Source of the DNA: Candidatus Vondammii sp. HM_W22
Lineage (GTDB): Bacteria > Pseudomonadota > Gammaproteobacteria > Chromatiales > Chromatiaceae
Reading direction: 5' to 3'
DNA: 64,000 bases
NCBI RefSeq assembly: GCF_022530855.2
Contig: NZ_CP099567.1
Location: 1,240,001 to 1,304,000 of the forward strand
Below, in pieces: positions 1,574 to 15,221 of the stretch; within the stretch, counting starts at the first letter, position 1; every line of letters begins with the position of its first letter. A model generated the notes under the pieces. The model was given only the letters and a program-made list of their open reading frames with translations. It made no database searches and was not told the DNA's origin. The translations under genes were made by a program, and so were the position numbers.

Positions 1574-2268
1574 GAGCTTGTAAAGTTTTCTGTGTAACTG
1601 CCTGGGTTAAATATATACCGCCAAGCGTTCTTCGAACTCAATCATAAATCTATTCAGTGCTAGTTTCCAATTACGGATCGGCATTATCCACTTTTTCGAT
1701 GCGGCCTGGATTGCCAGATAGATTACCTTCTTTGCCGAGTCATCGGTTGGAAATAATTTCCGTTTTTTGATCACTTTGCGAATGACGCTGTTCAGTGACT
1801 CAATGGCGTTGGTCGTGTAGATCACCTTTCGTATATCCTCCGGGTAGTTGAACAGCGTGTTCAGGTTCTCCCAATGGGCACGCCAGGAGCGGCTGATCCG
1901 GGGGTACTTGTTGTCCCACCGGTCAGAGAATTTATCCAGCGCCAATAAGGCTTCTTCCTTGGTGATGGACTGGTAAATCTTTTTCAAATTAGCCGTGACA
2001 GGCTTGTAGTCTTTCCAAGGCACGTACTTCATCGAGTTCCGTACCATATGCACGATACAGAGCTGGATCTGAGTCTCGGGAAACGCTGTATTGATTGCGT
2101 CTGGAAAGCCCTTCAGGCCATCAACACAGGCTATCAGGATATCCTTCACGCCGCGATTCTGGAGCTCTGTGAGTACATTGAGCCAGAACTTGGCACCCTC
2201 ATTCTCTGACAGCCAGAGCCTGACCTTCCCCCCATCTTAATACCAAGACTTGGATGAGATAATTCATT

Positions 2269-3087
2269 CTAAGCGGCCCTATTCACAAAGGCCACAGGTG
2301 ACAAATAATTTAATGCGCTATGAGGCCGCACGTGATTGTAGTGCTCTCGCCATTGATCAATTTCATGTCTAGCGTCATCAATGGACCTGAACCAATGCTG
2401 ATTTAAGCATTCATTTCTGAATTTACCGTTTAAGCTTTCTACAAACGCATTCTGAGTAGGCTTACCTGGCTGAATAAAACCTAGCTTAACGCCACTTTCT
2501 TTTTGCCAGTAGAACATCGCCTTGCTAGTAAACTCAGTACCGTTGTCGCAGATTATTTGATCCGGAGCGCTCCTTAGCTCAATCACCTGAGTTAAAAAAC
2601 GAGCGACCTGGTGACCATTGATCGAGAAGTCAGAGAGCTGGCCAATAACTTCTCTTGAGTAATCATCAATCACATTAAATACTCGAAAGCGGCGACCATT
2701 AGCCAACTGATCACTGACAAAATCCATTGACCAGCGTATATTTTTACCAATGGGCATAATCGTTGGCATTCTTGGTCGTATTATCTTCTTGCGTTTTTTA
2801 GTCCTCACTTGAAGACCTTCTTCGTTATAGACTCGGTAGGTCCGCTTCTTGTTTTTCACAAGCCCCTCTCCTCTCAGGAGGCCATGTAAAAACAAATAAC
2901 CATAACTCGGATGCTTTTTTGCCAGCTCAAGTAACCGTTTGCGTAGAGGCTCATCTTTTCCCCATTGAGTAACGTACCGAAAAGCGGTTCTACTTAAGCC
3001 TACTAATAGGCAAGCTCTACGCTCGCTTAATTTGAACCGCGACTTAAGGTAGCTCACGATTTGTTTTCTATCAGCAGGCTTTACCAC
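2269..3087 (-). CDS. IS3-family transposase OrfB (DDE integrase)
   Basis: The 272-residue frame has the rve integrase core: WSMDFVSDQLANGR gives the first Asp, ICDNGTEF the second, and AFVESLNGKFRNECL the catalytic Glu. The N terminus has the HTH-like segment usual in OrfB. The frame opens with GTG at 3087 inside the end of orfA. In this family the active enzyme is normally an OrfAB fusion made by -1 frameshifting, and an A6G stretch (AAAAAAG) near the end of orfA fits that. No internal stop is visible, so it may be active. Confidence 0.88.
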   Translation of the reverse strand: MVKPADRKQIVSYLKSRFKLSERRACLLVGLSRTAFRYVTQWGKDEPLRKRLLELAKKHPSYGYLFLHGLLRGEGLVKNKKRTYRVYNEEGLQVRTKKRKKIIRPRMPTIMPIGKNIRWSMDFVSDQLANGRRFRVFNVIDDYSREVIGQLSDFSINGHQVARFLTQVIELRSAPDQIICDNGTEFTSKAMFYWQKESGVKLGFIQPGKPTQNAFVESLNGKFRNECLNQHWFRSIDDARHEIDQWREHYNHVRPHSALNYLSPVAFVNRAA

Positions 3088-3347
3088 TTTTTTGAGAGCA
3101 CATCCTTCATCGCCTCAGCTTCAAGCATTTTCTCGGCAAGTAACTTCTTAAGCTTGTTATTTTCGCTTTCAAGCTCTTTGAGCCGTTTGGCTTCTGAGAC
3201 ATCCATCCCGGCGTATTTGCTTCGCCAGTTATAAAAGCACCCGGTTGAAATGCCGAACTGACGACAAATGTCATCAACTTTTACCCCTGACTCATGCTGC
3301 TTGATGGCACCAATAATTTGCTCTTCTCTGTAACGCTTCTTCTTCAT
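3081..3347 (-). CDS. IS3-family transposase OrfA
   Basis: An 88-residue protein from MKKKRYREEQIIGAIKQHES. It has a helix-turn-helix (VDDICRQFGISTGCFYNWRSKY) followed by a leucine-zipper-like coiled coil (LKELESENNKLKKLLAEKMLEAEAMKDVL). This is standard for OrfA, which binds the terminal repeats. The start at 3347 is preferred over upstream codons because it matches the conserved MKK-R-SEEQI start. It overlaps orfB by 7 bp with a slippery A6G run at the junction. Confidence 0.87.
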   Translation of the reverse strand: MKKKRYREEQIIGAIKQHESGVKVDDICRQFGISTGCFYNWRSKYAGMDVSEAKRLKELESENNKLKKLLAEKMLEAEAMKDVLSKKW

Positions 3348-3665
3348 GTTGAGATCTCCTAACATACAGACTAATTGGAAATCTCATCCTTGTCATGGCT
3401 CTATTTCTGGGGGAAAGGTCAGCCGTTACGGTTATTGTCAGCTTCGGACTGCTCGTGCCTTTCAAAGCCAAGATGATCATCTAACTCAGCGTTCAGTGCT
3501 GCTTCGACCGTAATTTTAGTTAGCATCTGATGGAAGTCTTTGAGGTGGTCTTCCGTCTTGATATTTTTAGCGGTCGCCTGTAGTTCTTTCTTGTCGATCA
3601 TCTGCCTGTCCTCACCCTTGTTTGGGTTTAATGATAGGCAATTACACAGAATTCAGGATAGTCTC

Positions 3666-4271
3666 CGAAATTAAGCTTCAGTAGCTTGTATATGCGGTAT
3701 ACCCGCTTATGGTTCCAGGGCTTTCCTTCACGCCGGAGCATGTCGAACATCAAACCAAATCCATACGTTGGTTATTTCGTCGCCAGCTGTTGCAGTGCAT
3801 CTATAACGGGCCGGTCTCGTTCTGTATCAGGTTCATAGTTATAACTGCTTCGACTAATATTGATCACCCTGCAGGCTGCACGTCGAGTCAGAACATGCTC
3901 GTCTTGCAGATAATCAACCAGTTCGCGCTTCTCAGCTGGCTTTAGAGCTTTTTTTCAATGACATCCTTAAGTGCGGCATGTTCCAGGCTTAAATTGGCGA
4001 ACATCTGCTTGAGACGCCTGTTCTCATTTTCAAGCTCTTTTAGACGCTTGATATCTGATGCCTGCATACCACCATATTTGCTCTTCCAGTTGTAGTAGGT
4101 GGCATCGGATATACCATACCTCCTTCACCTTCCTACCGCTCTCTACTTCCTTCAAAATACGGATAATCTGGCTTTCGGTATGTCTGCTCTTCTTCATCTT
4201 CGTTCTCCTGTCTGTGGTTAGTTTAACCGGAGAACTCTAATTTGTGATGGGCCTATTATCAGGGAGGATTA
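3666..4271 (-). pseudogene. IS3-family element remnant (orfA and start of orfB)
   Basis: The minus strand from ATG 4197 reads MKKSRHTESQIIRILKEVESG, then shifts frame near 4120. The HTH and zipper then continue as ATYYNWKSKYGGMQASDIKRLKELENENRRLKQMF. An orfB start (ALKPAEKRELVDYLQDEHVLTRRAACRVI) follows until it is cut at about 3666 by the IS256 end. Upstream, a terminal-repeat-like sequence ends near 4271. It is a different IS3 subtype from the 2221 element and is dead. Confidence 0.75.
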
Positions 4272-4495: not shown

Positions 4496-5059
4496 TTAGA
4501 CCGACTTCGCCTTCACACCATTAGCCAGCTTTGCAACCAGTATGCCTGCCACCATGCCAGAGGCATGCCCTACCCATGAGATATGTGGTCTGAAATCCAA
4601 CAGACTTATAATCAGGCCACCATACAAACAGGCGGTCACCGTTGCCAATAAGATATTTTTTGCTGAACGAGAGTAGTAGGCATCGGCCAGCAGATAGGCC
4701 CAATATCCGAACACCACACCACTGGCACCCGCATGATAGCCACTTGAGCCAAACCCCCAGGTTCCCAGGCCGCCCACGATTGTTAATAGCAGCGTAACTT
4801 CCCAAAATAGCACGCGCTCTTTGCTTTGGATTAGCCAGCCAAGCAGCAGAAACGGTATTGAATTACCCAGCAGATGCCAAATACCATGGTGTATAAAAGG
4901 AGCCAGAAGTATATGCCACAGCCCATCCAGGGTACGCGGCATAATCCCATAAGACCCAAACTCAAAACCGAGGAGTGTTTGGGTGCCCTGAATCACCCAC
5001 ATCAATATAAGCAGATAGAGTGCATCAGGAATGCGCAATATAGTTACTGATATAGACAC
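4496..5059 (-). CDS. Rhomboid family intramembrane serine protease
   Basis: A 187-residue membrane protein with about six hydrophobic segments and the rhomboid signatures. HHGIWHLLGNSIPF (residues 57-70) gives the conserved His/Asn of helix 2. GASG (111-114) gives the nucleophile Ser113. SWVGHASGMVAG gives the partner His165. Such proteases cleave transmembrane substrates within the membrane. It is the last gene of the polyamine/PspA/K+ channel operon and overlaps the channel gene by 16 bp, so it is probably co-translated with it. The substrate is unknown; a regulatory role toward other membrane proteins of the operon is only a guess. Confidence 0.85.
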   Translation of the reverse strand: MSISVTILRIPDALYLLILMWVIQGTQTLLGFEFGSYGIMPRTLDGLWHILLAPFIHHGIWHLLGNSIPFLLLGWLIQSKERVLFWEVTLLLTIVGGLGTWGFGSSGYHAGASGVVFGYWAYLLADAYYSRSAKNILLATVTACLYGGLIISLLDFRPHISWVGHASGMVAGILVAKLANGVKAKSV

Positions 5060-6147
5060 GTCCTAACCTGCTGTTCTGTTACTTTTTGACCATCATTGAG
5101 CAGGCTGATGATGGCATCACCACTGCAAATCCGAGTGGGGTCTGGATTGCACCGCACCTCACCATCGACTACATAGGCCATGGGTATACCCGCACCCGAT
5201 ATTACAAACCGGCAGATCAGATCTTGCCAGAATTGGTTCTGAAAGCCGATATCAAAACGTTGCATGTGCGCATTATCATGGGTAAAAAAGTCTTCCAGAA
5301 CCTCCTCAGTTCCCGGCGCAACGAGGGAGCGCACCAGAAAACCTGGATAGGCACGGATAGGACGCACCACAGCATTTGCCCCGGCTCTTTGCAGTCGTTT
5401 TCTATTTTCGTCATTGATGGCTTCTGCCAAAATCATGGCATTGGAGCCGATCTCTTGAATACGATCTAGCACATCAAAGGTGAGACTATCAGACTGCGGG
5501 TCAGCATAATCACTGGCAATAACAATAATGTAGCTTGCATCCGATACATTGACCGCGCGCAGGTTATCTGAATTCTCCGCATGACCAGTGAAATGCACCA
5601 CTCCAAGATCAGCAATATTTTTTGGCAGTGCCCCGGTAAACTTGTTTGTCAATATTTGCACTGGATATTCAGACAGTTCCGGGGTTGCTCTAATTTGCTG
5701 CACTAATTTATGCAGATAACTATCTGAATCAATATTCGGGGTATTTATTATCAGGATATGATCTTGCATATTCCATCTCCATCTACCGTATTTCTTTTCT
5801 GCACTAACCCACAATCTATGCTCAATAAACTCTGTGACAATATGGGCTAAAATTGAGATCCCGAAGGCATAGAGGCAGATAATGGTAATAATGCGACCGC
5901 CCGCTGTGCTTGGGCTTATATCGCCATAACCAACGGTGGTAACCGTAGTCAGTCCCATCCACAGCGCATCACCAAATGAGAGCCCCTCAAAAAACATCAT
6001 GCCTACTGCGCTAACAAAAACCAGCGTTAACAAGAGGGCAAGCAGTTTTATAAGCCTGACTGAAAAGTCAGGCGTGTAATGATGTGCATATTTACTGTAA
6101 CGATGCGGCTTCGATCGTCTAATTAGCAGGCGAATGAGAATCAACAA
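5044..6147 (-). CDS. Ion (K+) channel with RCK/TrkA-N domain
   Basis: A 367-residue protein. Two transmembrane helices flank the pore loop TTVGYGDISPS, whose TVGYGD selectivity filter lies at residues 71-76. A cytoplasmic TrkA-N/RCK-like domain follows (HILIINTPN through VVHFTGHAENSDNLRAVNVSDASYIIVIASD), ending with a C-terminal TrkA-C-like tail. Such channels gate K+ in response to nucleotides or ions. The TTG at 6147 overlaps the stop of the previous gene, suggesting coupled translation; the next in-frame ATG would remove the first helix. K+ channels of this type occur in the YjfI/PspA/spermidine-synthase gene neighbourhoods described by comparative genomics. Confidence 0.85.
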   Translation of the reverse strand: MLILIRLLIRRSKPHRYSKYAHHYTPDFSVRLIKLLALLLTLVFVSAVGMMFFEGLSFGDALWMGLTTVTTVGYGDISPSTAGGRIITIICLYAFGISILAHIVTEFIEHRLWVSAEKKYGRWRWNMQDHILIINTPNIDSDSYLHKLVQQIRATPELSEYPVQILTNKFTGALPKNIADLGVVHFTGHAENSDNLRAVNVSDASYIIVIASDYADPQSDSLTFDVLDRIQEIGSNAMILAEAINDENRKRLQRAGANAVVRPIRAYPGFLVRSLVAPGTEEVLEDFFTHDNAHMQRFDIGFQNQFWQDLICRFVISGAGIPMAYVVDGEVRCNPDPTRICSGDAIISLLNDGQKVTEQQVRTCLYQ

Positions 6148-6455
6148 GAGCTACCCTTTTCGTAGAAAAGATTGACCTCTTCTATAACATGACGTTTTAT
6201 CTCGGCTTCATCTGATGCATCCAGTTTGTAGTGTTGTGCCAGCTGAGCCAGCTCATCTTTATTAAAGGAGAGACCAACACGCGGGCGCTGTACTTTTACA
6301 TAGGTTAACCCGATGATTTTTCGTACAACATCACTAGGGACAATAGAGGCATTGGCTGCATCATGACGAATCTTTCGTAGAATGTCCTGTTGAAAAGTGA
6401 AGTGCATCTGCAACTTTTTAAGGACGCTCCTCTCCTTTGACCATTTATTACTCAC
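6141..6455 (-). CDS. Uncharacterised 104-residue protein of the polyamine/PspA operon
   Basis: I do not recognise the family. The likely start is GTG at 6455, giving VSNKWSKERSVLKKLQ. It overlaps the end of the upstream gene by 8 bp, and its own stop overlaps the channel start. The protein is charged and soluble, without a signal peptide. It is predicted to be mostly helical (FTFQQDILRKIRHDAANASIVPSDVVRKIIGL, then a second helical half ending EIKRHVIEEVNLFYEKGSSC). The tight overlaps on both sides argue that it is a real gene working with the DUF2491-like protein and the channel. Confidence 0.7.
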   Translation of the reverse strand: MSNKWSKERSVLKKLQMHFTFQQDILRKIRHDAANASIVPSDVVRKIIGLTYVKVQRPRVGLSFNKDELAQLAQHYKLDASDEAEIKRHVIEEVNLFYEKGSSC

Positions 6456-7068
6456 TGGGCCACATCTCCTCAATGACATCGAAGGGACAGAGCGCAGCCA
6501 GCGAGACATCAGTATCACCATCACCCCATATTTCAACAGAGAGGCAGCGCGTATCTACATTGCCAACACATTCGTGATAGCGTAGCTCTTCACTCTCATT
6601 ATCTTTCGGCACCACGCCTCCACAATCACGATTGTAGTAGTAGGCTTCGCCCTCTTTTATACGTTGTATATAACTGTCGGCAAGCCAGCTTGTCAGCTCT
6701 GCTAGCTTCTCTTTCACTGTTAATGTAACAAACTCTTCGCCCCAAAGCCCTGAAAATTCATCTTCATCAAACAGGGTAAACAGCATTGACTCTGGCAGTT
6801 TGATAGAGAAACAGAGCTGCGGGTCACCATCATTATCATCGACTGAAAGATAGTATGTTTTGTTATCTTCACTGCGCAAGGTTAGCTCTTTTGTGATCTC
6901 TGTTTCAGAGTATTGATAGCCGCCTACTTTAGTAACTTCCAACTGCTGGCCTTGCAGTTCATCCGGCAATGAACGGCGCTGTTTTAAAGCAACGATGTCA
7001 CCTATTTGCAACTGACCTGGATCAGTTAATGTGCGAGGCTTGTTACTACCAAAGAATGTTTTAAACAT
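6448..7068 (-). CDS. YjfK-like protein (DUF2491/DUF4178 type)
   Basis: A 206-residue soluble protein. The N-terminal half is a beta-rich module: LQIGDIVALKQRR, EVTKVGGYQY, KTYYLSVDDNDGDPQLCFSIKL. This pattern resembles DUF4178/DUF2491 proteins encoded beside PspA homologs, such as E. coli YjfK. The C-terminal half carries acidic and aromatic motifs (EGEAYYYNRDCGG). The function is unknown. It lies between pspA and the 104-residue gene, and a GCAA-loop hairpin lies just upstream. The assignment to one of the two DUFs rests on pattern memory, not on an alignment. Confidence 0.65.
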   Translation of the reverse strand: MFKTFFGSNKPRTLTDPGQLQIGDIVALKQRRSLPDELQGQQLEVTKVGGYQYSETEITKELTLRSEDNKTYYLSVDDNDGDPQLCFSIKLPESMLFTLFDEDEFSGLWGEEFVTLTVKEKLAELTSWLADSYIQRIKEGEAYYYNRDCGGVVPKDNESEELRYHECVGNVDTRCLSVEIWGDGDTDVSLAALCPFDVIEEMWPSE

Positions 7069-7088
7069 TTAACGTACCTAAAATGTCA

Positions 7089-7108
7089 AAGGCACCTTGC
7101 GGTGCCTT
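7089..7108 (-). terminator. Hairpin between pspA-like and yjfK-like genes
   Basis: The sequence forms an 8-bp perfect stem, AAGGCACC / GGTGCCTT, with a GCAA (GNRA-type) loop on the transcribed strand. Only a weak T-rich stretch follows. It could be a leaky terminator or a processing or stability element that sets the ratio of PspA to downstream products. Confidence 0.5.
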
Positions 7109-7113
7109 ATCAA

Positions 7114-7812
7114 TTAACCAGCTTTTTGTTTTGCTCTAATCTTTTCAAGAATTGAGTGTTTATTAGACCCCGTAGAGCCACCAATACCACTCTGCTTCAA
7201 TCGTGCATCAAGGTCATCGCCCTGCTCTTGCGTCTCCATCCATTCACCTGCTTCCATGTTATCACGCCAATTCTGCTGTTTAGTTTTGACGCGTTCCAAT
7301 GCCTTCGCAACACGGTGTTGACTGGAGCTGGTGGCAGCAACATTATCAGAGATACTTGTTGTTGCCTTTTGAACTTCTTTTATGGTCTTTACCTTTTCCA
7401 GGTCACGCCTGTTTTTTTGGATGATCTTTTCACGCGAACGAACCAGCTTATTGATAGCATTCACTTCACTTGAAAGTGCATTGTGTTCAGCTGTTTTATC
7501 ATCACGCTCGCTGGCGATCTCTTCCAGACGTTCAGCAACCTTTTCAGCCAATGACTCTTGACCGGCATTCAGCGCCTCAATGGCCTTGGCTTCGTAGTCA
7601 TCATAGTCTGTATTCAGACTATTGATTTCGCGTTTTAATTTAATTTCAGAGCCCTTCAGACGGGTCAGACTCTGCTTGGCTTTGGCGATAGCACTCTCGG
7701 CATCACGAATCTCCTGCTCTAAAATACGTATCGCGTTGGCATCGATAATTGCTTCACCAGCTTCATTGGCACCACCACGTATGGCGGTAAAAATATCTTT
7801 TAAAATACTCAT
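7114..7812 (-). CDS. PspA/IM30 family membrane-stress protein
   Basis: A 232-residue protein made almost entirely of heptad-rich helices (EQEIRDAESAIAKAKQSLTRLKG; later NKLVRSREKIIQKNRRDLEKVKTI). It begins MSILKDIFTAIRGGANEAGEAIIDANAIRILEQ, the typical amphipathic start of PspA/IM30 (ESCRT-III-like) proteins that bind and stabilise the inner membrane. It most resembles the YjfJ branch by neighbourhood: a DUF2170 gene upstream and a YjfK-like gene downstream. No PspF, PspB or PspC is present, so regulation must differ from the classical phage-shock system. Confidence 0.88.
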   Translation of the reverse strand: MSILKDIFTAIRGGANEAGEAIIDANAIRILEQEIRDAESAIAKAKQSLTRLKGSEIKLKREINSLNTDYDDYEAKAIEALNAGQESLAEKVAERLEEIASERDDKTAEHNALSSEVNAINKLVRSREKIIQKNRRDLEKVKTIKEVQKATTSISDNVAATSSSQHRVAKALERVKTKQQNWRDNMEAGEWMETQEQGDDLDARLKQSGIGGSTGSNKHSILEKIRAKQKAG

Positions 7813-7825
7813 AAAAAACCTCTGG

Positions 7826-8233
7826 TTATGCGAGTAATGATTGGATGGCTTCTAAAACATCAATGGTATTTTCTGCCTGAACTTCCAATTCATGAACAAT
7901 AATTTCAAAATTTGTACCCAGGGCTATCGCGCCAAACAGGATGTAGGTTTCATCCTGCAAGCCAAAGGCGCTCAGCGGTACAGCTGGAGCAAGTTGCAAT
8001 AGCATCTTATTGAGATTATCAACTTCATTTTCTGCTACTTCTGCCACGCTAAACAATGGGGTTACGGCAAGCAGTTGCGTATCAGTCAATGCTAAATGGA
8101 TAGGAAACTCATCATTATTCGAACAGACAACCTCTAGGACTCCATTGTCCAGCAGCAAGGCATCAAAGGATGTGCCTTCGTCCGTTACATGATCGTTTAG
8201 TCGAAACGCCAGCTCTTCAAGCGTGATGGTCAT
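7826..8233 (-). CDS. DUF2170 (YjfI-like) protein
   Basis: A 135-residue acidic protein starting MTITLEELAFRLNDH. The ATG at 8233 is chosen because an AGGAG lies 7 nt upstream and the start matches the WTLEEL-type N terminus of YjfI. It contains FPIHLALTDTQLLAVTPLF and YILFGAIALGTNFEIIVHELEVQAENTIDVLEAI, a pattern of one-domain proteins encoded next to PspA homologs. The function is unknown. It is 13 bp from the pspA-like gene and surely co-transcribed. Confidence 0.72.
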   Translation of the reverse strand: MTITLEELAFRLNDHVTDEGTSFDALLLDNGVLEVVCSNNDEFPIHLALTDTQLLAVTPLFSVAEVAENEVDNLNKMLLQLAPAVPLSAFGLQDETYILFGAIALGTNFEIIVHELEVQAENTIDVLEAIQSLLA

Positions 8234-8362
8234 ACAATGCTCCTGTTTGGTATCGGCTGCCATATTATGTCAACTGCCTTAAAATATATGTCATATTATG
8301 ACGTAGGTCAAACTTAATTTCACCTGGATCGTGCAAGCGATCGTGTGTGTAGGATTTAGGTT

Positions 8363-10075
8363 TTACTCTTTTGCAAAAAAAACACCATTCTGTTTTGACC
8401 AAGCCTCGTAGTGATACTGATATACTTGATGGCTTCCCAAGTAGTTTATCTCAATTGAATCAGTCTCTTCAAAGAATGATGGCGCAAAAATAAAAGCGGC
8501 TTCTAATGCGGCTTTTGAGAGCCAGGGGTCAGTTACTGGCAGCTCACTTATCTGGGCAATCCGCTGTGATGCGGTTAATCCTCGAATTGTACCAATGGTC
8601 CAACCCCACTCACCAAAGGTGGGCACATTGGTATGATACTGCTCGATTTTATAGCCCGCCGCCTGCATGGTTTTTCCAATAGAAATAAAGGCTTTCTTTG
8701 CATGATAGGGTGATGTCGACTGCACGGCAATGGCTCCGTCACCTGAGAGCAGCTCCTTCAGTCGTGCATAAAAGAAGTCGGAATAGAGCTTATTCAGATC
8801 AGGATGACTGGGATCAGTGAGATCAACAATGATGGTATCGAAATGACGCTTCCCTGTGACCAATCGTTCCACTTCAATAAAGGCATCTCCAATAATGATG
8901 GAGACCCTTGGGTCATTAAAGGCATCCTGATTAAGGCTCAGCAGCATCTGCTCGACATCAGCCGGGGCATCCGGATCTTCTCCTTTGAAGAGGGCGATCA
9001 TTGCCTCATCAAGGTCAATCAGTGTTACCTGCCTGGGGTTCCATCGCAGAATATCCCGCACGGCCATGCCATCACCACCGCCAATCACCAGTACACTGCC
9101 GCGTCGGGCAGAGGATAGCAGCGCCGGATAGGTCAAATAGCTGTGGTAGATATTTTCATCACTGCTGGAGAACTGTAGCCGCCCATTGATATAGAGACTC
9201 AGCAGGCTCGGTAGCCCCTGTCCTACATGACGGCGGGTCAGCGTGAGGTGTTGATAAGGCGTTACCTTGCTGTAGATGGGGGTGTCTTTAAACAGGGTGT
9301 AGTTCATCTGTAGAACCCAACCGCTACCATTAATGGCCAGCACGATGAGAACAATAGCCAACCCGGCATGCACAATCCACAACCTGACTGGCTGGATAAT
9401 TCTTGATTGATAACGCCAGAGAAAGATAAGTCCAATCAGCAGATTGACCGCAGCAGTCCCCACCGCAGCGGTGATAATCGGGATGTTGAGACAGATTCCA
9501 ACCCAGATTGCCGCCCCAATCCCCGCGCCAATATAATCTGCACCATAAATCGTGCCGGTATTGTGAGCCAGATGTTTTCCGTGAACCTGCTCACGCACCC
9601 GTGCGATGAGTGGAATCTCCATCCCAATCATTGCTCCTAAAATAAATCCTGCAACAAAAGGGGTGTAAAAAGCGAGGGTCTGCAGCGCAGCAATAAAGCC
9701 GCCATCTGTGGTGATTGAAGGGTGTAGCCCGTAGATCTGCTGTAGCCACACAGGCAGGGTGTAAGTAAGGGCGAGCATCCCTGCCATCACCAGAATTGAA
9801 CAGCCGCCCAGCAGGCCGATCCCGACCTCAAGCCAAGCAAAGCCAGTAAATGGGCACTTGACCCAGCGGGCTAGAAAGGCGCCGACGCCCATCGCTACGA
9901 TCATTATGCCAATCATGGCATAGATGGTACTTTCTACTGCGCCAACGATGCGCCCTGCATAGTGCGCCAGTAGATACTCATAGATCAGCCCGCATCCAGC
10001 CAAAATCAACATGCTGACAATTAGCAGTGCATCGTGACCCAATAACTGCCTGGATGACGGAGCTGTGGTTTCCAT
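8363..10075 (-). CDS. Membrane-embedded polyamine aminopropyltransferase (spermidine synthase-like)
   Basis: A 570-residue fusion. Residues 15-255 form about seven transmembrane helices. Residues 290-540 form a spermidine synthase domain: YINGRLQFSSSDENIYH (295-311), the SAM-type glycine loop VIGGGDGMA (330-338), and VDLTDP (417-422) with the catalytic Asp. In this family decarboxylated SAM donates an aminopropyl group to a polyamine such as putrescine. The partner speD, which makes the donor, is four genes upstream in the same operon. Why the enzyme is tied to the membrane is unknown; the acceptor may be a membrane-proximal amine. Confidence 0.9.
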   Translation of the reverse strand: METTAPSSRQLLGHDALLIVSMLILAGCGLIYEYLLAHYAGRIVGAVESTIYAMIGIMIVAMGVGAFLARWVKCPFTGFAWLEVGIGLLGGCSILVMAGMLALTYTLPVWLQQIYGLHPSITTDGGFIAALQTLAFYTPFVAGFILGAMIGMEIPLIARVREQVHGKHLAHNTGTIYGADYIGAGIGAAIWVGICLNIPIITAAVGTAAVNLLIGLIFLWRYQSRIIQPVRLWIVHAGLAIVLIVLAINGSGWVLQMNYTLFKDTPIYSKVTPYQHLTLTRRHVGQGLPSLLSLYINGRLQFSSSDENIYHSYLTYPALLSSARRGSVLVIGGGDGMAVRDILRWNPRQVTLIDLDEAMIALFKGEDPDAPADVEQMLLSLNQDAFNDPRVSIIIGDAFIEVERLVTGKRHFDTIIVDLTDPSHPDLNKLYSDFFYARLKELLSGDGAIAVQSTSPYHAKKAFISIGKTMQAAGYKIEQYHTNVPTFGEWGWTIGTIRGLTASQRIAQISELPVTDPWLSKAALEAAFIFAPSFFEETDSIEINYLGSHQVYQYHYEAWSKQNGVFFAKE

Positions 10076-10080
10076 TTTAG

Positions 10081-10968
10081 CTACCCAAGCAGTGAACTCA
10101 CAATCAACCCGACTGCAATAAAGAGCGTAGCTTCAATAGAGGCCACACCAATATTCTGCTGCTCATCTACCTCTTGGACCACATCAATATTGTGCAATAC
10201 CGCATGGCGCGCTAGCACTGCGAGCCCACTGATAACGGCTGTAATGGCCAGTGCCACAAACAGCCAGTTGAATATTAATCCGACAAAAGAAAGGGAGTGG
10301 TATGCAACGAGGCCAGAGGCAGCCTTAACACCAAATGCAGCGCTCATGAGATGTCCAAAATAACGAATAGCCAGAGCACTGTTGCCATTCTCCAGTGCCT
10401 GTTGCAGGACTTTACCATTATGTCGCTTTTCATAGATTCGACCGCGCAGTCGAGTAACGGCCAATAAGACAACCTGCGCCACAAAGAAGACCATAATCAC
10501 AGAAAGTATGCTTGGCCATGAGTCAGACTCCACCCAATGAGCCGCTGTATTAATGATCAGTCCCAATGCAATTAGATTAGCTGCTTGCACAATACCGGCG
10601 GCAATGTTCTTTTCATGCACCTGCTGTTTAAGTGAAAAATGGTGGAAGATCACCTGATCATTAATAATCGTCCCTACCTTCAATAGCACGATACCAATAA
10701 TCGCATAAATAATTACATTCCAGGCCTCATTGAGAATTCCTTCAGATGCCTCCCCACTGACCGCACCTGCCAAAACCAGCGCCAGAGCCAGTGTCCCACC
10801 CGCCACTGAAATGCCAAAGGCATAGTTATCCCGTGTTGCCAGCTCAGTCGTTGTATCCACCCCTGCCAACAGGCCTTGAAGATAACGCAACGCACAGATA
10901 GCACCTACAGCGATAAGCAGGTCTACAAAGACAATACTGATCGCCCATAGTGAAAAACCATTATTCAT
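10081..10968 (-). CDS. Tandem DUF350 membrane protein
   Basis: A 295-residue protein of about eight hydrophobic helices arranged as two similar halves. Each half has a NYAFGISVAGGTLAL or IGVASIEATLFIAVGLI type segment (the second half is degenerate) and a VIIYAIIGIVLLKVG segment. This is the DUF350 (YjfL) layout, normally one or two repeats per protein. It lies 5 bp upstream of the aminopropyltransferase gene. DUF350 proteins recur beside spermidine synthase-like and PspA genes; their transport or sensing role is not established. Confidence 0.8.
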   Translation of the reverse strand: MNNGFSLWAISIVFVDLLIAVGAICALRYLQGLLAGVDTTTELATRDNYAFGISVAGGTLALALVLAGAVSGEASEGILNEAWNVIIYAIIGIVLLKVGTIINDQVIFHHFSLKQQVHEKNIAAGIVQAANLIALGLIINTAAHWVESDSWPSILSVIMVFFVAQVVLLAVTRLRGRIYEKRHNGKVLQQALENGNSALAIRYFGHLMSAAFGVKAASGLVAYHSLSFVGLIFNWLFVALAITAVISGLAVLARHAVLHNIDVVQEVDEQQNIGVASIEATLFIAVGLIVSSLLG

Positions 10969-10987
10969 TTTGCTTCTCCGGTACTAC

Positions 10988-11977
10988 TTATTTTCCGCCA
11001 CTAAAGCTGCGGCTGGTGCGTGAGTATGAATTACGAGCAGAAGAACCGCCTCCAGCAAACTTACTCGGTGCTCTAAAGCTGCTGCGTTTGCTTTTACCCG
11101 AAAATTTATTGGCAGATTTAACAGAATTTCGCTTGGCTGCAGCTGATGCCCCTGCCTTGGTTTTGGCATATGGACTCTTGAATGACTGGCCACTTTTTTG
11201 AAATTTGAGCTTTGTTTTTGCTGCCTGGGTCTGCTGCCCTTTACGCTGTGATGGTGAGGTGTAGTAGTTACGCCCATAATCACTGTAGTAGCTGTAACCA
11301 CGATTACCTGCCCAGCCGCCATAGTAAATCGGGGGGCTAAGCACATGACTGAATAGCGAATACATGCCATACCACTCCCATAAGGAGCGCCCACTGCTAT
11401 TCTCTCGCCAGTGACCATAATTGGGATTGCCCACCAGCTGGCTACCCGCCCCATAATCGCCGCTCTGATTGGCCTGTTGCGTAGCCTCTTTGCTCATCGC
11501 CTCTACACGAGCCAGTTTGCCATTGGACATGTCCGCCAGCACATTGATGGGATCTGTCAGCATCATGCCAAATAGCGCAGGATCAGCCGCTACCTGAATA
11601 GCGTTAAACTCCTGCTGTAGCTGGATCACTGCCTGCTCACCCCCCTTAACCGCTTGGGGAACTGCTTTATTTGCGTTATCCAACCGCCCTTTTAATCCAC
11701 CCAAAATAGGGCCATTTGCTGTAGCATCCGTCGCTAATATTTCAACAATCCCTTTTAAGTCAGGAGACTGTTTCTTTACAACATCCGCATAAGATTTCAA
11801 CAACCTAACATTTCGAATAGATTGCCGGTTGATTTTAACAACGAGCTGTTTTAATTCAGCGTCTGTTTCAGACGAGGATGACTGTAGCGACTTTTGCCAC
11901 AATTCCTCATTCGAAGTGCATCCACTTAGCCCAAACAGGACAAGCAAGAGGATGCAAAGTATCGGGATAATTCTCAT
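10988..11977 (-). CDS. Putative lipoprotein with basic Ser/Gly-rich tail, polyamine operon
   Basis: A 329-residue protein from MRIIPILCILLLVLFGLSGCTS, a clear lipoprotein signal with lipobox LSGC. The first two thirds are helical (KINRQSIRNVRLLKSYADVVKKQSPDLKGIVEIL). A Tyr/Gly-rich stretch follows (PPIYYGGWAGNRGYSYYSDYGRNYY). The C terminus is strongly basic and rich in Ser, Lys and Gly, ending SRSFSGGK. It sits between speD and the DUF350 gene. I do not recognise a named family. The tail could bind an anionic surface or nucleic acid; that is inference. Confidence 0.72.
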   Translation of the reverse strand: MRIIPILCILLLVLFGLSGCTSNEELWQKSLQSSSSETDAELKQLVVKINRQSIRNVRLLKSYADVVKKQSPDLKGIVEILATDATANGPILGGLKGRLDNANKAVPQAVKGGEQAVIQLQQEFNAIQVAADPALFGMMLTDPINVLADMSNGKLARVEAMSKEATQQANQSGDYGAGSQLVGNPNYGHWRENSSGRSLWEWYGMYSLFSHVLSPPIYYGGWAGNRGYSYYSDYGRNYYTSPSQRKGQQTQAAKTKLKFQKSGQSFKSPYAKTKAGASAAAKRNSVKSANKFSGKSKRSSFRAPSKFAGGGSSARNSYSRTSRSFSGGK

Positions 11978-12017
11978 AGCACTCCCGTAGATCATCATGA
12001 ATTTTGTACCATATGCC

Positions 12018-12425
12018 TCACCCAACATATAAAGGATCAAATTGAGTATGATAAGTTGGGAAGTCTGCAGAGAGAGTCATTGCATTAAATGGCAGACCAC
12101 GATCAATAGCTTGCACAGAGGTTACGGCACCAGCACAGGCCGAGGTGATCACATCAGCAGCTCGTAGTGGCCTGCAATCACCACACATAAATACATCAAA
12201 GGCCGCATAATTATGCTCAGGCCAAGTATGCACCGTCATGTGTGATTCAGCCAACAGCACCACCCCCGTTATGCCTTTGCCTGTGCCAAACGGATGAAAA
12301 TAAGCCTGCAATACAGAGGCACTACCCGCTTTGGCCGCTGACACAAGCAGTCTCTCCAGCTCTTTTTCACTGAGATGGGCATGCTGTCCCTGACATTCGA
12401 TAATTAGATGGCGACCAATATTCAA
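12018..12425 (-). CDS. speD: S-adenosylmethionine decarboxylase proenzyme
   Basis: A 135-residue class 1B enzyme. The motif LLAESHMTVHTWPE contains the self-cleavage site, with Ser61 becoming the pyruvoyl group, and FMCGDC supplies the conserved catalytic Cys region. It converts SAM to decarboxylated SAM, the aminopropyl donor for the synthase encoded downstream. Translation probably starts at the TTG at 12425, 8 nt after GAGG; the next candidate lies inside the conserved domain. It is the first gene of the ten-gene operon, and an extended -10 promoter lies directly upstream. Confidence 0.93.
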   Translation of the reverse strand: MNIGRHLIIECQGQHAHLSEKELERLLVSAAKAGSASVLQAYFHPFGTGKGITGVVLLAESHMTVHTWPEHNYAAFDVFMCGDCRPLRAADVITSACAGAVTSVQAIDRGLPFNAMTLSADFPTYHTQFDPLYVG

Positions 12426-12447
12426 CCGTTACCTCGATTTCACCTGC

Positions 12448-12456
12448 ATTATAACA
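12448..12456 (-). promoter_or_regulatory. Probable extended -10 promoter of the speD operon
   Basis: On the minus strand TG-T-TATAAT is a perfect -10 with an extended TGN, 20-30 nt before the TTG start of speD. A TTGACA nearby is only 9 nt away and cannot serve as its -35. No regulator site was recognised. Confidence 0.45.
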
Positions 12457-12548: not shown

Positions 12549-13320
12549 TTAGACCACTCCGCTATTCATTTTGAAACGGTCTTCGTACTGCTGGGGTGAC
12601 AGCAAACCATTTGTACCATGTCTGCGTGTCGAGTTGTAAAATAATTCAATGTAATTAAACATATTTTCTCTGGCTTCCCCTCTGGTTTTGTAAATTTTAC
12701 GGTGTATGCGCTCTCGTTTAAGTAGCTGGAAGAAACTCTCAGCTACCGCATTATCATGGCAATTACCTCGTCGCCTCATGCTCGGTTTAAGATTCTTGTC
12801 TTTTAAAAAAGACAACTATTCGTTGCCAGTGAACTGTGAACCCTGATCAGAATGAATGAGCACCTATTCGACAGGCTTACGTCGCCAAACAGCCATCCCT
12901 AACGCGTTGGGATAAAAGTAGTATCCGATACCCATGCCTTATCCGGCATTTCGACATCAAAGTGACGTTTAAGCCTGTCTGTCGCTGGTTGCAGAGTATT
13001 CTTCGAGTCGGTTGTAATGATAAACTTTTGGCCATCTTTGACTGAATACCGTGCTTCATCATCAGCCTAGCAACACGATTAACACCGATCTGCTCACCGG
13101 TATCGACCAGATCCTGATGTATCCTAGGTGAGCCGTAGATCTTACGACTGGCTTTATGAAACAGGCTGATTTTTCTCACGAGTTGACGATTGCACTTAGC
13201 TCGGGTGTTTTCCGGTCTGTCTCGCCATGCGTAGTACCCGCTGGGTGATACCTCCAGTGTCTGGCAGAGTCGGGTAACGTTATACTCCATACTGTTAGCT
13301 TGGATATAAGGTGTACTTCA
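12549..13320 (-). pseudogene. IS3-family transposase OrfB, frameshifted
   Basis: The minus strand reads MEYNVTRLCQTLEVSPSGYYAWRDRPENTRAK, then the HTH_21 region SRKIYGSPRIHQDL, and loses frame after about residue 90. The C-terminal part resumes at 12815 as LKPSMRRRGNCHDNAVAESFFQLLKRERI, which holds the catalytic Glu region. It then runs to 12549. Because of the frameshift and the missing middle Asp region it cannot be active. Confidence 0.8.
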
Positions 13321-13347
13321 CTTCAGCTCCTTTGCAAAGTACACCGC

Positions 13348-15221
13348 TGTAGATTCAATGGGTTGATGCAACACATTATACTCAATGATCAATTTATGGG
13401 GATTATGTGATGGCAAGACTTGGCAGACCTGGACTCACAGATAATCAAAAACAAGAACTATGGTCACGTTGGCGGAAGGGAGAATCACTTAGTGATATAG
13501 GCCGTGCCCTCGAAAAACAGCCTGCATCAATTTTTGGTGTGCTAAGATTATTTGGAGGGTATTGCCCTTCAGTTGAGTTATAGTCAAATCTGGTGTTTAG
13601 CTAGTTGAATCAAGCGGCAACCTGATCGATTCCTGCTACCTCAACACCCTCTTTAAATTTGATTCCGGTTATCACCTTCGCCAGGTAATCGAAACCCCGT
13701 AATCGTCTCCACTTCTTCTCGGCACACAGGCCGAGTTTGAACATCATGTGTAGCATGCCGTCACGCGATAGGCAGCCCTTGGAACGCTTGGTTCGATGGC
13801 GGATTATCCCGAAGGTGGATTCAATCGGATTGCTGGTCCGAATGCTCTGCCAGTGCTGCGCAGGAAATTGATAGAAAGCCATCAGTTCCTCTCGGTCTTT
13901 GTGCAGACAGATGGTAGCCTTCGGATACTTTGGCTCATACGTTTTGATAAACAGATCAAAGGCCTTTTCCGCATCGGCCTGGGTCTCCGACTGCCAGATG
14001 TTATGCAGTGCCTGCTTCGCTTTCGGCTGAGCTGACCTTGGCAGGCAGTTCAGCACGTTCATGGTCTTGTGCATCCAGCAGCGCTGCTGGCGCGTCTCCG
14101 GATACACTTCCTCCAGCACAGCCCGGAATCCCATGGCACCGTCACCGATCGCCAATTTGGGCGGGGTCAGTCCGCGTGACTTCAGTTTCAACAGTACCTA
14201 CCACCAGCTCTGTGCGGACTCCCGTACACCATCCTCAATTGCCAGAAAATACTTCTCACCACGCTCATTCACGCCGATCACCACCAGGGCACACAGCTTC
14301 GTCTGCTCTGCTCTCTGCCCACACTACACCCAATGGCCCTTATCCAGGCGCTCCTCGTACCAGCTCCGATATTCTTCTGCCCAGACCTGCTTCAGACGCG
14401 ACACCGTGCCGGCCGACAAGCCTGTTGCATCCGGACCCACCAGTACTTTCAGGGCTTCACCCATCTCTCCACTGGAAATCCCCTTCAGGTAGAGCCACGC
14501 CAGCGCCGCTTCCAGTGACTTCGTCTTGCGTGCATACGGCGGCACCAGCTCGCCGTTCTTCGCACGAACTTTGGGGATCTTGACCGTGACCGGCCCCAAT
14601 CCTGTCTGCAGTTTACGAGCTGGCAGGTGACCATTACGCACCACACCCGTCTTGCCATCCTCTGTCCGTCGCTCGACGTGCTCCGCCAACAGCTCCAGCA
14701 GCTCGGCCTCCACCACCTGGTAGATCAACTGCTCTGCACCGCTTCTCGGCAACTCTGTCAGCGGATCGATAATCGTATCTCGACCTGCCAGCTTAACAAC
14801 GTTATTCTTACTCATGGTGGCGTATCTCCAATGGTTGTTTTGATGTCTCGCAACAACAAATCAACCAGATACCCCGCTTTTTTTCAATTCCTTTCAAACA
14901 ACACTTTCAGTTGTAACTCGGTACAGTCATTAACTTGGGATAGGGGGATGGAGCTTTCCGGTCACAAGAAATTTACTATGGCGACAGATGCAAAAGTCTA
15001 CTTTTGTGACCCATAAAATACATGGAAAAGAGGGACCAATGAAAATACAAATCGGCTATTGAGGCAGTACTTTCAGAAGAAAACAGACTTATCGATTTAC
15101 TCTCAGGCACAATTAGATCGCGTGGCGAAAAAACTCAATTAACGACCGAGAAAAACATTGGACTTCGCCACTTCTGCAGATAAACTAAATGACGGTGTTG
15201 CATCGACCACTTGAATCTACA
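13348..15221 (+). mobile_element. IS30-family element split by an IS256 element
   Basis: The ends are TGTAGATTCAA at 13348 and TTGAATCTACA at 15221, followed inward by a GGTYGATGCAACAC sequence on both sides. A 2-bp GC flanks each end, as expected for IS30. The transposase start is at 13410 (MARLGRPGLTDNQKQELWSRW). After about 55 residues it is interrupted. The C terminus reappears at about 14900-15210 (LTWDRGMELSGHKKF, then NENTNRLLRQYFQKKTDLSIYSQAQLDRV) with stop codons and frameshifts. About 160 middle residues are missing. Confidence 0.75.
13575..14919 (-). mobile_element. IS256-family element (second type), decayed transposase
   Basis: It lies inside the IS30 remnant. The ends share GAGTTA..AGTC-AAA..GTGTT on opposite strands. 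The transposase starts at ATG 14815 (MSKNNVVKLAGRDTIIDPLTELPRSGAEQ) and matches the intact protein at 22103-23335 along its length. It has a stop after GHWV (near 14324) where about nine residues are lost, and a second stop near 14198. The DDE-region piece then runs from 14191 to 13610. No 8-bp target duplication is seen, consistent with loss of the adjacent IS30 middle. Confidence 0.8.

What the first reader, a model, noticed from the sequence alone, without database searches (positions are those of the whole stretch)
4496..12456. Ten-gene polyamine / PspA / K+ channel / rhomboid operon
Seen: speD, lipoprotein, tandem DUF350, membrane-anchored aminopropyltransferase, DUF2170, PspA/IM30, YjfK-like, 104-residue unknown, RCK K+ channel and rhomboid, all on one strand with overlaps or short gaps, behind one extended -10 promoter. 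Known: comparative-genomics work has linked YjfI/J/K/L-type genes with AdoMet decarboxylase, spermidine synthase, K+ channels and often a glutathionylspermidine-synthase-like ATP-grasp (YjfC). Here the ATP-grasp is absent and a rhomboid and a lipoprotein with a basic tail are added. Inference: the operon couples a modified polyamine, made at the membrane, to PspA membrane repair and K+ flux, with regulated intramembrane cleavage. It is intact while genes on both sides are decayed, so it is under selection.
Basis: partly seen in the sequence, partly recalled or inferred. Interest (0 to 1): 0.82.

Follow-up and report, generated by a model that had tools for sequence, protein, structure and literature searches.

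The report
Extended PspA stress operon with rhomboid
A ten-gene bacterial membrane-stress operon of a recently described kind, here in an extended form with a potassium channel and a membrane protease, and with conserved DNA sites that suggest its own small DNA-binding protein is the switch.

Summary
The ten genes are real, intact and co-linear. "YjfK-like" belongs to a DUF4178-like family (19 of 43 members hit DUF4178, none DUF2491); the "unknown" 104-mer is probably ribbon-helix-helix. The lipoprotein is standard (77 of 80 relatives). The rhomboid is a clade-specific extra: the same ten genes occur in 9 of 80 relatives, and a rhomboid also directly follows one group-3 operon. The channel slot holds channels of different builds.

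New here: a palindrome, GNCATAWTATGNC, lies before DUF2170 in 73 of 81 loci with the RHH gene and 2 of 21 without (both cut contigs); independent contrasts are few. The window has two copies around a promoter inside the operon, so "one promoter" fails. The genome has one SpeD, one aminopropyltransferase and no putrescine enzyme in the four families searched, so the acceptor is probably not home-made putrescine. The lipoprotein ends in -GK in 83 of 85. Acceptor, channel ligand and rhomboid substrate remain unknown.

The parts
12018..12425 (-). speD, class 1b S-adenosylmethionine decarboxylase (135 aa, TTG start)
   Evidence: TIGR03330 106.3 bits over cut-off 75.65; only AdoMet_dc match in the genome
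12454..12454 (-). point where homology with L083 and L095 begins; the palindrome found at speD in six relatives is not intact here
   Evidence: blastn; sites at speD in relatives
10988..11977 (-). lipoprotein (329 aa), helical domain plus disordered Ser/Arg/Gly tail ending in -GK
   Evidence: lipobox read; -GK in 83 of 85; model with low confidence at 284-329
10081..10968 (-). tandem DUF350 membrane protein (YjfL family, double length)
   Evidence: PF03994, two stretches, 111.8 bits
8363..10075 (-). aminopropyltransferase (APT): N-terminal membrane domain, about 7 TM, plus SpeE-like domain
   Evidence: NF002956 572.9 bits; one match in the genome; hydropathy
8306..8311 (-). -35-like element TTGACC of a promoter inside the operon
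   Evidence: TTGAC in 8 of 8 close loci
8283..8288 (-). -10-like element TATATT of that promoter
8290..8302 (.). palindrome site 1, GTCATAATATGAC, between -35 and -10
8259..8271 (.). palindrome site 2, GACATAATATGGC on the - strand, just before DUF2170
7826..8233 (-). DUF2170 (CesT/Tir-type, YjfI/BacA family); start at 8233 has GGAG before it in 8 of 8 close loci; the listed ATG at 8263 lies inside site 2
   Evidence: PF09938 78.7 bits
7114..7812 (-). PspA/IM30
   Evidence: PF04012 109.5 bits; one match in the genome
6448..7068 (-). member of a DUF4178-like family (not YjfK/DUF2491)
   Evidence: 19 of 43 members hit DUF4178, 0 DUF2491; the window copy alone hits nothing
6141..6455 (-). 104-aa probable ribbon-helix-helix protein, perhaps two RHH units; candidate repressor
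   Evidence: AlphaFold model pLDDT 86.8; best structural matches Arc, CopG, NikA, PutA, Z 4.3-4.6; weak Pfam hits in relatives
5044..6147 (-). K+ channel, 2TM pore with TVGYGD filter and RCK/TrkA-N domain
   Evidence: PF07885 58.2 bits, PF02254 25.4 bits
4496..5059 (-). rhomboid protease (187 aa, GTG start overlapping the channel gene), HAGASG and HISWVGH motifs
   Evidence: PF01694 73.3 bits; motifs in 12 of 12 operon copies
12549..13290 (-). IS3-type transposase pieces upstream
   Evidence: rve_2, rve_3 and HTH_21 hits
1607..4197 (-). Mutator/IS256 and IS3-type transposase pieces downstream

Best explanation
This is an RHH-controlled envelope-maintenance operon of the PspA/CesT-Tir type built on aminopropyl chemistry. 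SpeD makes decarboxylated AdoMet; the membrane-bound APT moves its aminopropyl group to an amine at the membrane that is probably not home-made putrescine; DUF350 and a lipoprotein with a basic tail are its usual membrane partners. PspA with DUF2170 and DUF4178 is the membrane-binding or repair arm, and the channel adds K+ flux. In this clade a rhomboid, whose gene overlaps that of the channel, probably cleaves or clears a membrane component of the set. The RHH protein represses the PspA module, and in relatives also the speD module, by binding GNCATAWTATGNC. Shown by sequence: gene set, order, conservation, palindromes and promoter-like elements. Inferred: RHH as their binder, repression, the acceptor, and the roles of channel and rhomboid.
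For: Gene set and order: 72 of 80 named loci have all five core families; the full ten genes in 9 of 80. Chemistry: SpeD over its curated cut-off; SpeE-domain residues 306, 307, 310, 311, 335, 356, 397, 418 and 421 invariant in 92 of 92. Acceptor: one AdoMet_dc and one APT match in the genome, sole PF02784 hit LysA-like (293.0 bits, cut-off 297.9), no PF01276, PF00491 or PF01862. Five of 80 loci keep only speD, lipoprotein, DUF350 and APT, so these can stand as a unit. Channel: of 36 loci with RHH and channel frames, 31 have them overlapping or at most 50 bases apart, frames taken stop to stop; builds differ (window; 4 of the 16 non-RCK ones typed). Regulation: palindrome in 73 of 81 RHH loci against 2 of 21 without; 138 sites in 38,760 bases around the DUF2170 frame start against 37 in 1,965,769 elsewhere, 29 of those 37 at speD or the lipoprotein; of 118 permuted half-sites the best was in 1 of 102 regions, the real one in 63 of 102. 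L089, inside the rhomboid clade, lacks both RHH and palindrome.
Against: Independent contrasts between RHH and palindrome are few: 3 pairs, the same way in 1.4 on average, the other way in 0, no power; much of the count is shared inheritance. No binding data. L107 has RHH but its best site has 5 mismatches; L059 and L080 have only a 2-mismatch site, and the same 2-mismatch site stands in L066, L069 and L072, where no RHH was found (L072 ends at a contig end). The one SpeD could itself be a neofunctionalised ornithine or arginine decarboxylase, as known for other SpeD homologues (PMC10407285, passages read); I did not test this. Nine of 11 relatives with the rhomboid operon have more than one PF02784 hit, so lack of putrescine synthesis is not general. 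The rhomboid has no known substrate and its nearest homologues in the class are encoded away from the operon. The RHH assignment rests on a model with Foldseek E-values above 1 and Z under 5; 18 of 62 relatives hit a phage family instead, 9 NikA-like, 3 RHH_1, 1 RHH_10.
Confidence: 0.55

Rival explanations
1. Ordinary polyamine synthesis: SpeD and APT make spermidine or a relative from imported putrescine (or from putrescine made by an unrecognised route), placed at the membrane; the other genes respond to envelope stress and are merely co-regulated.
For: All SpeE-domain acidic and Tyr/His motif residues checked are invariant; closest solved relatives are polyamine aminopropyltransferase, spermidine synthase and thermospermine synthase; P. 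aeruginosa SpeE2, next to a class 1b SpeD, was identified as a thermospermine synthase (PMC11107197, passages read).
Against: No ABC ATPase over the PotA cut-off among 39 hits; no putrescine enzyme in four families; other uptake families were not searched. APT fails the SpeE equivalog cut-off (105.6 of 249.55 bits). Li et al. 2019 reported that such fusions do not replace spermidine synthase (recalled; paper not held).
Confidence: 0.22
2. The palindrome is bound by another regulator encoded elsewhere, and the RHH protein has a different role (for instance a protein partner of PspA).
For: RHH and palindrome share most of their history (4 and 6 changes on the PspA tree); the RHH fold assignment is weak; L066 and L069 have a 2-mismatch site without RHH.
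Against: 19 of 21 loci without RHH lack the exact site, L089 among them. L067 and L076 keep RHH and the site without APT, and the four Moritella loci, with APT but no RHH, have one site in all.
Confidence: 0.2
3. The extra genes (channel, rhomboid) are passengers: neighbours fixed by shared ancestry, without a joint function.
For: Rhomboid-bearing loci form nearly one clade (12 of 14 rows of a supported set, 3 changes, quick tree); rhomboids of the same subfamily sit alone in other genomes.
Against: Channels of different builds fill the same slot. A rhomboid also directly follows a group-3 PspA operon in L071. Frame overlap and catalytic motifs are kept in loci labelled Methylococcaceae and Thiotrichaceae.
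Confidence: 0.15

Closest known systems
Second CesT/Tir-PspA operon group of Ravi et al. 2024 (PMC11237479; passages read; figures and tables not seen)
   Same: CesT/Tir (DUF2170), PspA, 7TM-fused spermidine synthase domain, 8TM DUF350, lipoprotein, DUF4178, sometimes an RHH last gene
   Different: Adds speD, an RCK K+ channel and a rhomboid; the passages read name neither for this group ('rhomboid' 0 hits in the main text). An operator is not mentioned in the passages read
Third CesT/Tir-PspA group, E. coli yjf type (same paper)
   Same: CesT/Tir-PspA, DUF350, K+ channel, a lipoprotein; in L071 followed by a rhomboid
   Different: ATP-grasp, DUF2491, DUF1190 and 4TM DUF350 instead of APT, DUF4178, this lipoprotein and double-length DUF350
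AdoMetDC / MFS-SpdSyn fusion / DUF350 clusters of Li et al. 2019, Biochem J 476:2579 (recalled abstract; paper not held)
   Same: SpeD with a membrane-SpeE fusion and DUF350; acceptor thought not to be putrescine
   Different: PspA module, channel, rhomboid and operator are not part of what I recall
P. aeruginosa bac operon (PMC10948618, passages read)
   Same: DUF2170 (BacA) with a PspA homologue (BacB); linked to biofilm
   Different: No spermidine synthase in or around it; a putative sigma-54 site is reported there, whereas here a -35/-10 with this palindrome

Membership tests
Ravi group 2 PspA operon | DUF2170 (CesT/Tir) next to PspA | tested here: met
   adjacent genes 7826-8233 and 7114-7812
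Ravi group 2 PspA operon | spermidine-synthase domain fused to N-terminal 7TM domain | tested here: met
   NF002956; 7 hydropathy peaks
Ravi group 2 PspA operon | double-length (8TM) DUF350 protein | tested here: met
   two DUF350 stretches in 295 aa; TM number itself not resolved
Ravi group 2 PspA operon | novel lipoprotein (Ctha_1186 domain) | tested here: inconclusive
   lipoprotein present and conserved; no Ctha_1186 profile was at hand
Ravi group 2 PspA operon | DUF4178 protein | tested here: met
   at family level: 19 of 43 members, best E 2.4e-8; window copy alone has no hit
Ravi group 2 PspA operon | RHH protein at the end (in some) | tested here: inconclusive
   RHH-like by model and some relatives, all weak; followed here by channel and rhomboid
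Ravi group 3 (YjfC) operon | ATP-grasp glutathionylspermidine-synthetase-like ligase | tested here: not met
   no PF03738 match in the whole genome
Ravi group 3 (YjfC) operon | DUF2491 (YjfK) | tested here: not met
   0 of 43 members; L071, a group-3 operon, gives 272.4 bits
Ravi group 3 (YjfC) operon | DUF1190 lipoprotein | tested here: not met
   window lipoprotein has no DUF1190 hit; L071 has one, 171.2 bits
Canonical spermidine synthase SpeE | TIGR00417 equivalog score | tested here: not met
   105.6 bits, cut-off 249.55
Canonical spermidine synthase SpeE | activity on putrescine | not testable with these tools
   needs an enzyme assay
S-adenosylmethionine decarboxylase class 1b | TIGR03330 score and processing-serine motif | tested here: met
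   106.3 of 75.65 bits; ESHMTVHTWPEH (motif recalled). Substrate not tested
Rhomboid protease | catalytic Ser (GxSG) and His | tested here: met
   12 of 12 copies, one as GASA
Rhombosortase | TIGR03902 score | tested here: not met
   26 of 84 bits
RCK K+ channel | selectivity filter and RCK domain | tested here: met
   T[VI]GYGD in 22 of 25 close homologues

The most novel reading that the evidence does not exclude
The APT does not make a free polyamine but adds aminopropyl groups to the lipoprotein's basic Ser/Arg/Gly tail, whose C-terminal Gly-Lys is kept in 83 of 85 homologues, or to a membrane lipid. It may do so on the outer face: seven predicted TM helices with the positive-inside pattern in 92 of 92 homologues put the catalytic domain outside, so the membrane domain would have to pass decarboxylated AdoMet. 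This would be covalent charging of the envelope, read out by PspA, K+ channel and rhomboid and switched by the RHH repressor.
Probability: 0.08. Interest if true: 0.9.

Novelty: new variant of a known kind. Interest (0 to 1): 0.52.

Why it matters
Why PspA operons carry aminopropyl chemistry is an open question (Ravi et al. propose polyamine sensing or aminopropylation of other substrates; passages read). The operon gives three direct handles on it: a candidate repressor-operator pair that can be footprinted, a nearly invariant lipoprotein C-terminus that can be read by mass spectrometry, and a host whose genome shows no putrescine enzyme in the families searched. The channel slot filled by unlike channels argues that K+ flux belongs to the system. 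The rhomboid adds a protease whose substrate may be encoded beside it.

Tried and rejected
Rejected: the yjf/YjfC reading. Rejected: rhombosortase; the lipoprotein tail is predicted disordered, without a C-terminal helix to be sorted. Rejected: EAGR-box meaning of the lipoprotein hit (21.4 bits, cut-off 27).

Tried without result: a palindrome TAGACTnnAGTCTA before speD is exact in only 3 relatives. The ATP-grasp was looked for elsewhere in the genome and not found. The rhomboid neighbourhood in five other operon-bearing genomes, and in seven further genomes, shows no operon genes. APT acceptor pocket: Phe487 is invariant (92 of 92) where B. subtilis SpeE 1iy9 has Tyr, but the solved aminopropyltransferase 7xif also has Phe there, so this does not settle the acceptor. 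Li et al. 2019 could not be read. The operator in print: the two exact 13-mers gave one unrelated plant paper. Papers with at least three of rhomboid, PspA, potassium channel, spermidine synthase: two in the listing, Ravi et al. with rhomboid 0 times and a mitochondrial paper. AlphaFold was not available for APT after the two jobs went to RHH and the lipoprotein. Not searched: agmatine deiminase, and polyamine uptake other than PotA.

Rows dropped or special: one search used a wrong frame for the lipoprotein, so its lipoprotein rows are void; corrected. The 8 RHH loci without a site include L067 and L118, which have exact sites outside my search interval (L067 10507 and 10522, L118 11864), and L063, L101 and L122 with one mismatch. 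L081 and L152, with site but no RHH, are contigs cut within the operon; they were left out of the pair test (98 rows). L072 and L124 are identical in APT. Three of 25 channels lack the exact filter pattern. In the class sample, besides the window's genome, five operon-bearing genomes have a hit to the window rhomboid and others (for example G108, G110, G172, G211, G229, G235, G339) have none.
Full report
What is there. Ten unbroken frames run on the - strand from 12425 to 4496: speD, a lipoprotein, tandem DUF350, a membrane aminopropyltransferase (APT), DUF2170, PspA, a DUF4178-like protein, a probable ribbon-helix-helix (RHH) protein, an RCK K+ channel and a rhomboid. With the starts I prefer, gaps run from -16 to 45 bases except one of about 130 between APT and DUF2170. 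SpeD, APT and PspA each give one match in the 3.35 Mb genome. The ten flanking frames scanned are transposase pieces of IS3 and Mutator/IS256 type.

Which known kind. Ravi et al. 2024 (PMC11237479, passages read) describe several CesT/Tir-PspA operon groups. The window fits the second: DUF2170, PspA, 7TM-SpeE fusion, 8TM DUF350, lipoprotein, DUF4178, sometimes RHH. The window copy itself hits neither, so this identification is by family.

Conservation. I aligned 11 APTs and scanned one genome for each of 84,980 species; the best 80 of 438 relatives were kept. With profiles built from the window proteins the 80 loci hold, in one linked cluster: DUF350 in 78, lipoprotein 77, DUF2170, PspA and DUF4178 73 each, RHH 70, speD 25, RCK channel 21, another channel 16, rhomboid 11; all five core families in 72. 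The full ten genes occur in 9 of 80, in the window's order; L087 has eight, cut by a contig end; L092 lacks only the channel. Five loci have only speD, lipoprotein, DUF350 and APT, which suggests an aminopropyl unit and a PspA unit. The 80 are the closest relatives, so the tallies describe this neighbourhood of the family and not all of it. In an even draw of 369 genomes of the class, 27 have DUF2170, and these include operons of other kinds. The one genome of the same genus and most of the same family have no full-length relative of this APT.

Rhomboid. On a quick APT tree of 92 rows the 12 rhomboid-bearing rows lie in a supported set of 14 (SH-aLRT 96); the other two are L089, whose contig ends in the channel gene, and L091, labelled Desulfocapsaceae, which lacks it. 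The set includes MAGs named Sedimenticola, Oceanospirillaceae, Methyloprofundus and Thiotrichaceae, so the variant has moved between families or is old. The catalytic Ser and His motifs are kept in 12 of 12, with GASA in one. In L071 a rhomboid directly follows a complete group-3 operon (DUF2170, PspA, channel, DUF2491, DUF350, DUF1190, GSP_synth), an independent link, seen once. Against a tight link: 83 of 369 genomes have a hit to this rhomboid; the five best after the window's own are all in operon-bearing genomes but lie on other contigs with unrelated neighbours, and other operon-bearing genomes have no hit.

Channel. Of 36 loci with RHH and channel frames, 31 have them overlapping or at most 50 bases apart. 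Different channels in one slot argue that the ion flux itself is selected.

Regulation. The APT-DUF2170 gap is strikingly conserved among close relatives: TTGAC at -35, 17 bases, TAT..T at -10 in 8 of 8 loci compared, with a palindrome 9 bases after the start of the -35 hexamer and a second 31 bases further on. The window sites are 8290-8302 and 8259-8271; within the window alone, 3 matches at up to one mismatch are not unusual (chance mean 1.03; 9 of 100 shuffles reach 3), so the evidence is comparative. Across 102 loci with DUF2170, the pattern G-N-CATAWTATG-N-C occurs 138 times in 38,760 bases around the DUF2170 frame start and 37 times in 1,965,769 other bases; 29 of the 37 are at speD or the lipoprotein. 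Of 118 permuted half-sites the best occurs in 1 of 102 regions, the real strict palindrome in 63. It is present in 73 of 81 loci with RHH and 2 of 21 without, the two being cut contigs. L089 lacks RHH and the site together. Against: L107 has RHH but no near site; L059 and L080 have only a 2-mismatch site, which also stands in L066, L069 and L072, where no RHH was found. RHH and site have few independent changes on the tree, so the pair test has no power (3 pairs). I conclude, as inference, that the RHH protein is an autorepressor. In six relatives a site also lies at speD; in the window, homology with L083 and L095 starts only at 12454, inside that region, so control of the speD module has probably been altered there.

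Chemistry. SpeD is over its curated cut-off and the SpeE-domain residues listed above are invariant in 92 of 92 APTs. But the genome shows no decarboxylase of PF01276, no agmatinase/arginase and no pyruvoyl arginine decarboxylase, and its one PF02784 protein is a LysA-type enzyme just under the LysA cut-off (293.0 of 297.9 bits). No ABC ATPase reaches the PotA cut-off (0 of 39). Carboxyspermidine-type enzymes would also show in PF02784 (recalled). A SpeD homologue can itself be an ornithine or arginine decarboxylase (PMC10407285, passages read); this was not tested for the window's SpeD. Among 11 genomes with the rhomboid operon, 2 have a single PF02784 hit, LysA in both by NCBIfam (L164, L174), and 9 have two or three, four of these counting a hit under the cut-off; so the lack of putrescine enzymes is not a general rule. 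Li et al. 2019, recalled and not read, concluded for such fusions that the acceptor is not putrescine; the genome result agrees.

Lipoprotein tail and APT side. The lipoprotein has a confident helical domain and a low-confidence, disordered tail that ends in Gly-Lys in 83 of 85 homologues, where for the other nine proteins the commonest last dipeptide covers at most about a third. Of the two exceptions L092 ends in Ser-Lys and L091 is a split frame. The APT membrane part shows seven hydropathy peaks, and positive charge favours the N-terminus and loops 2, 4 and 6 over loops 1 and 3 in 92 of 92 rows, which puts the catalytic domain outside if all seven cross. Against this, the 25 residues after the last helix carry 3.0 Lys/Arg on average, and the donor is made in the cytosol. 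This is a simple calculation, not a trained predictor; it is a lead only.

Verdict. A well-supported new variant of a known operon kind. The new and testable parts are the candidate operator, the rhomboid clade, the interchangeable channel and the nearly invariant lipoprotein end. The function of the aminopropyl transfer stays open.

Noticed in passing
L083:7542, L084:305, L095:7565: A second palindrome, TAGACTnnAGTCTA, lies 78 bases before the speD frame in three close relatives; not in the window, whose upstream region is not homologous.
   Followed up: partly
window:12487-12510: Near-perfect 24-base palindrome AGATCCACAATCAATTGCGGATCT just upstream of the homology break before speD; meaning unknown.
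   Followed up: no
L071:15172-15726: Rhomboid directly behind a group-3 PspA operon with GSP_synth.
   Followed up: yes
L089 (DUF4178 12949-13581, channel 13596-14612): RHH gene and palindromes are missing together in one member of the rhomboid clade.
   Followed up: partly
L091:5797-6888: Operon in a MAG labelled Desulfocapsaceae, with the lipoprotein split over two frames: transfer between phyla or mis-binning.
   Followed up: no
L228-L232: The five genomes whose rhomboid is most like the window's, apart from its own, all carry the operon, but the rhomboid lies elsewhere with unrelated neighbours.
   Followed up: partly
L071:13265-13981: The DUF1190 lipoprotein of the group-3 operon also ends in a Ser/Gly/Arg-rich tail, like the group-2 lipoprotein.
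   Followed up: no
window:16625-17854: 409-aa frame whose translation looks like a sulfatase/phosphoethanolamine transferase (from reading only; not tested).
   Followed up: no
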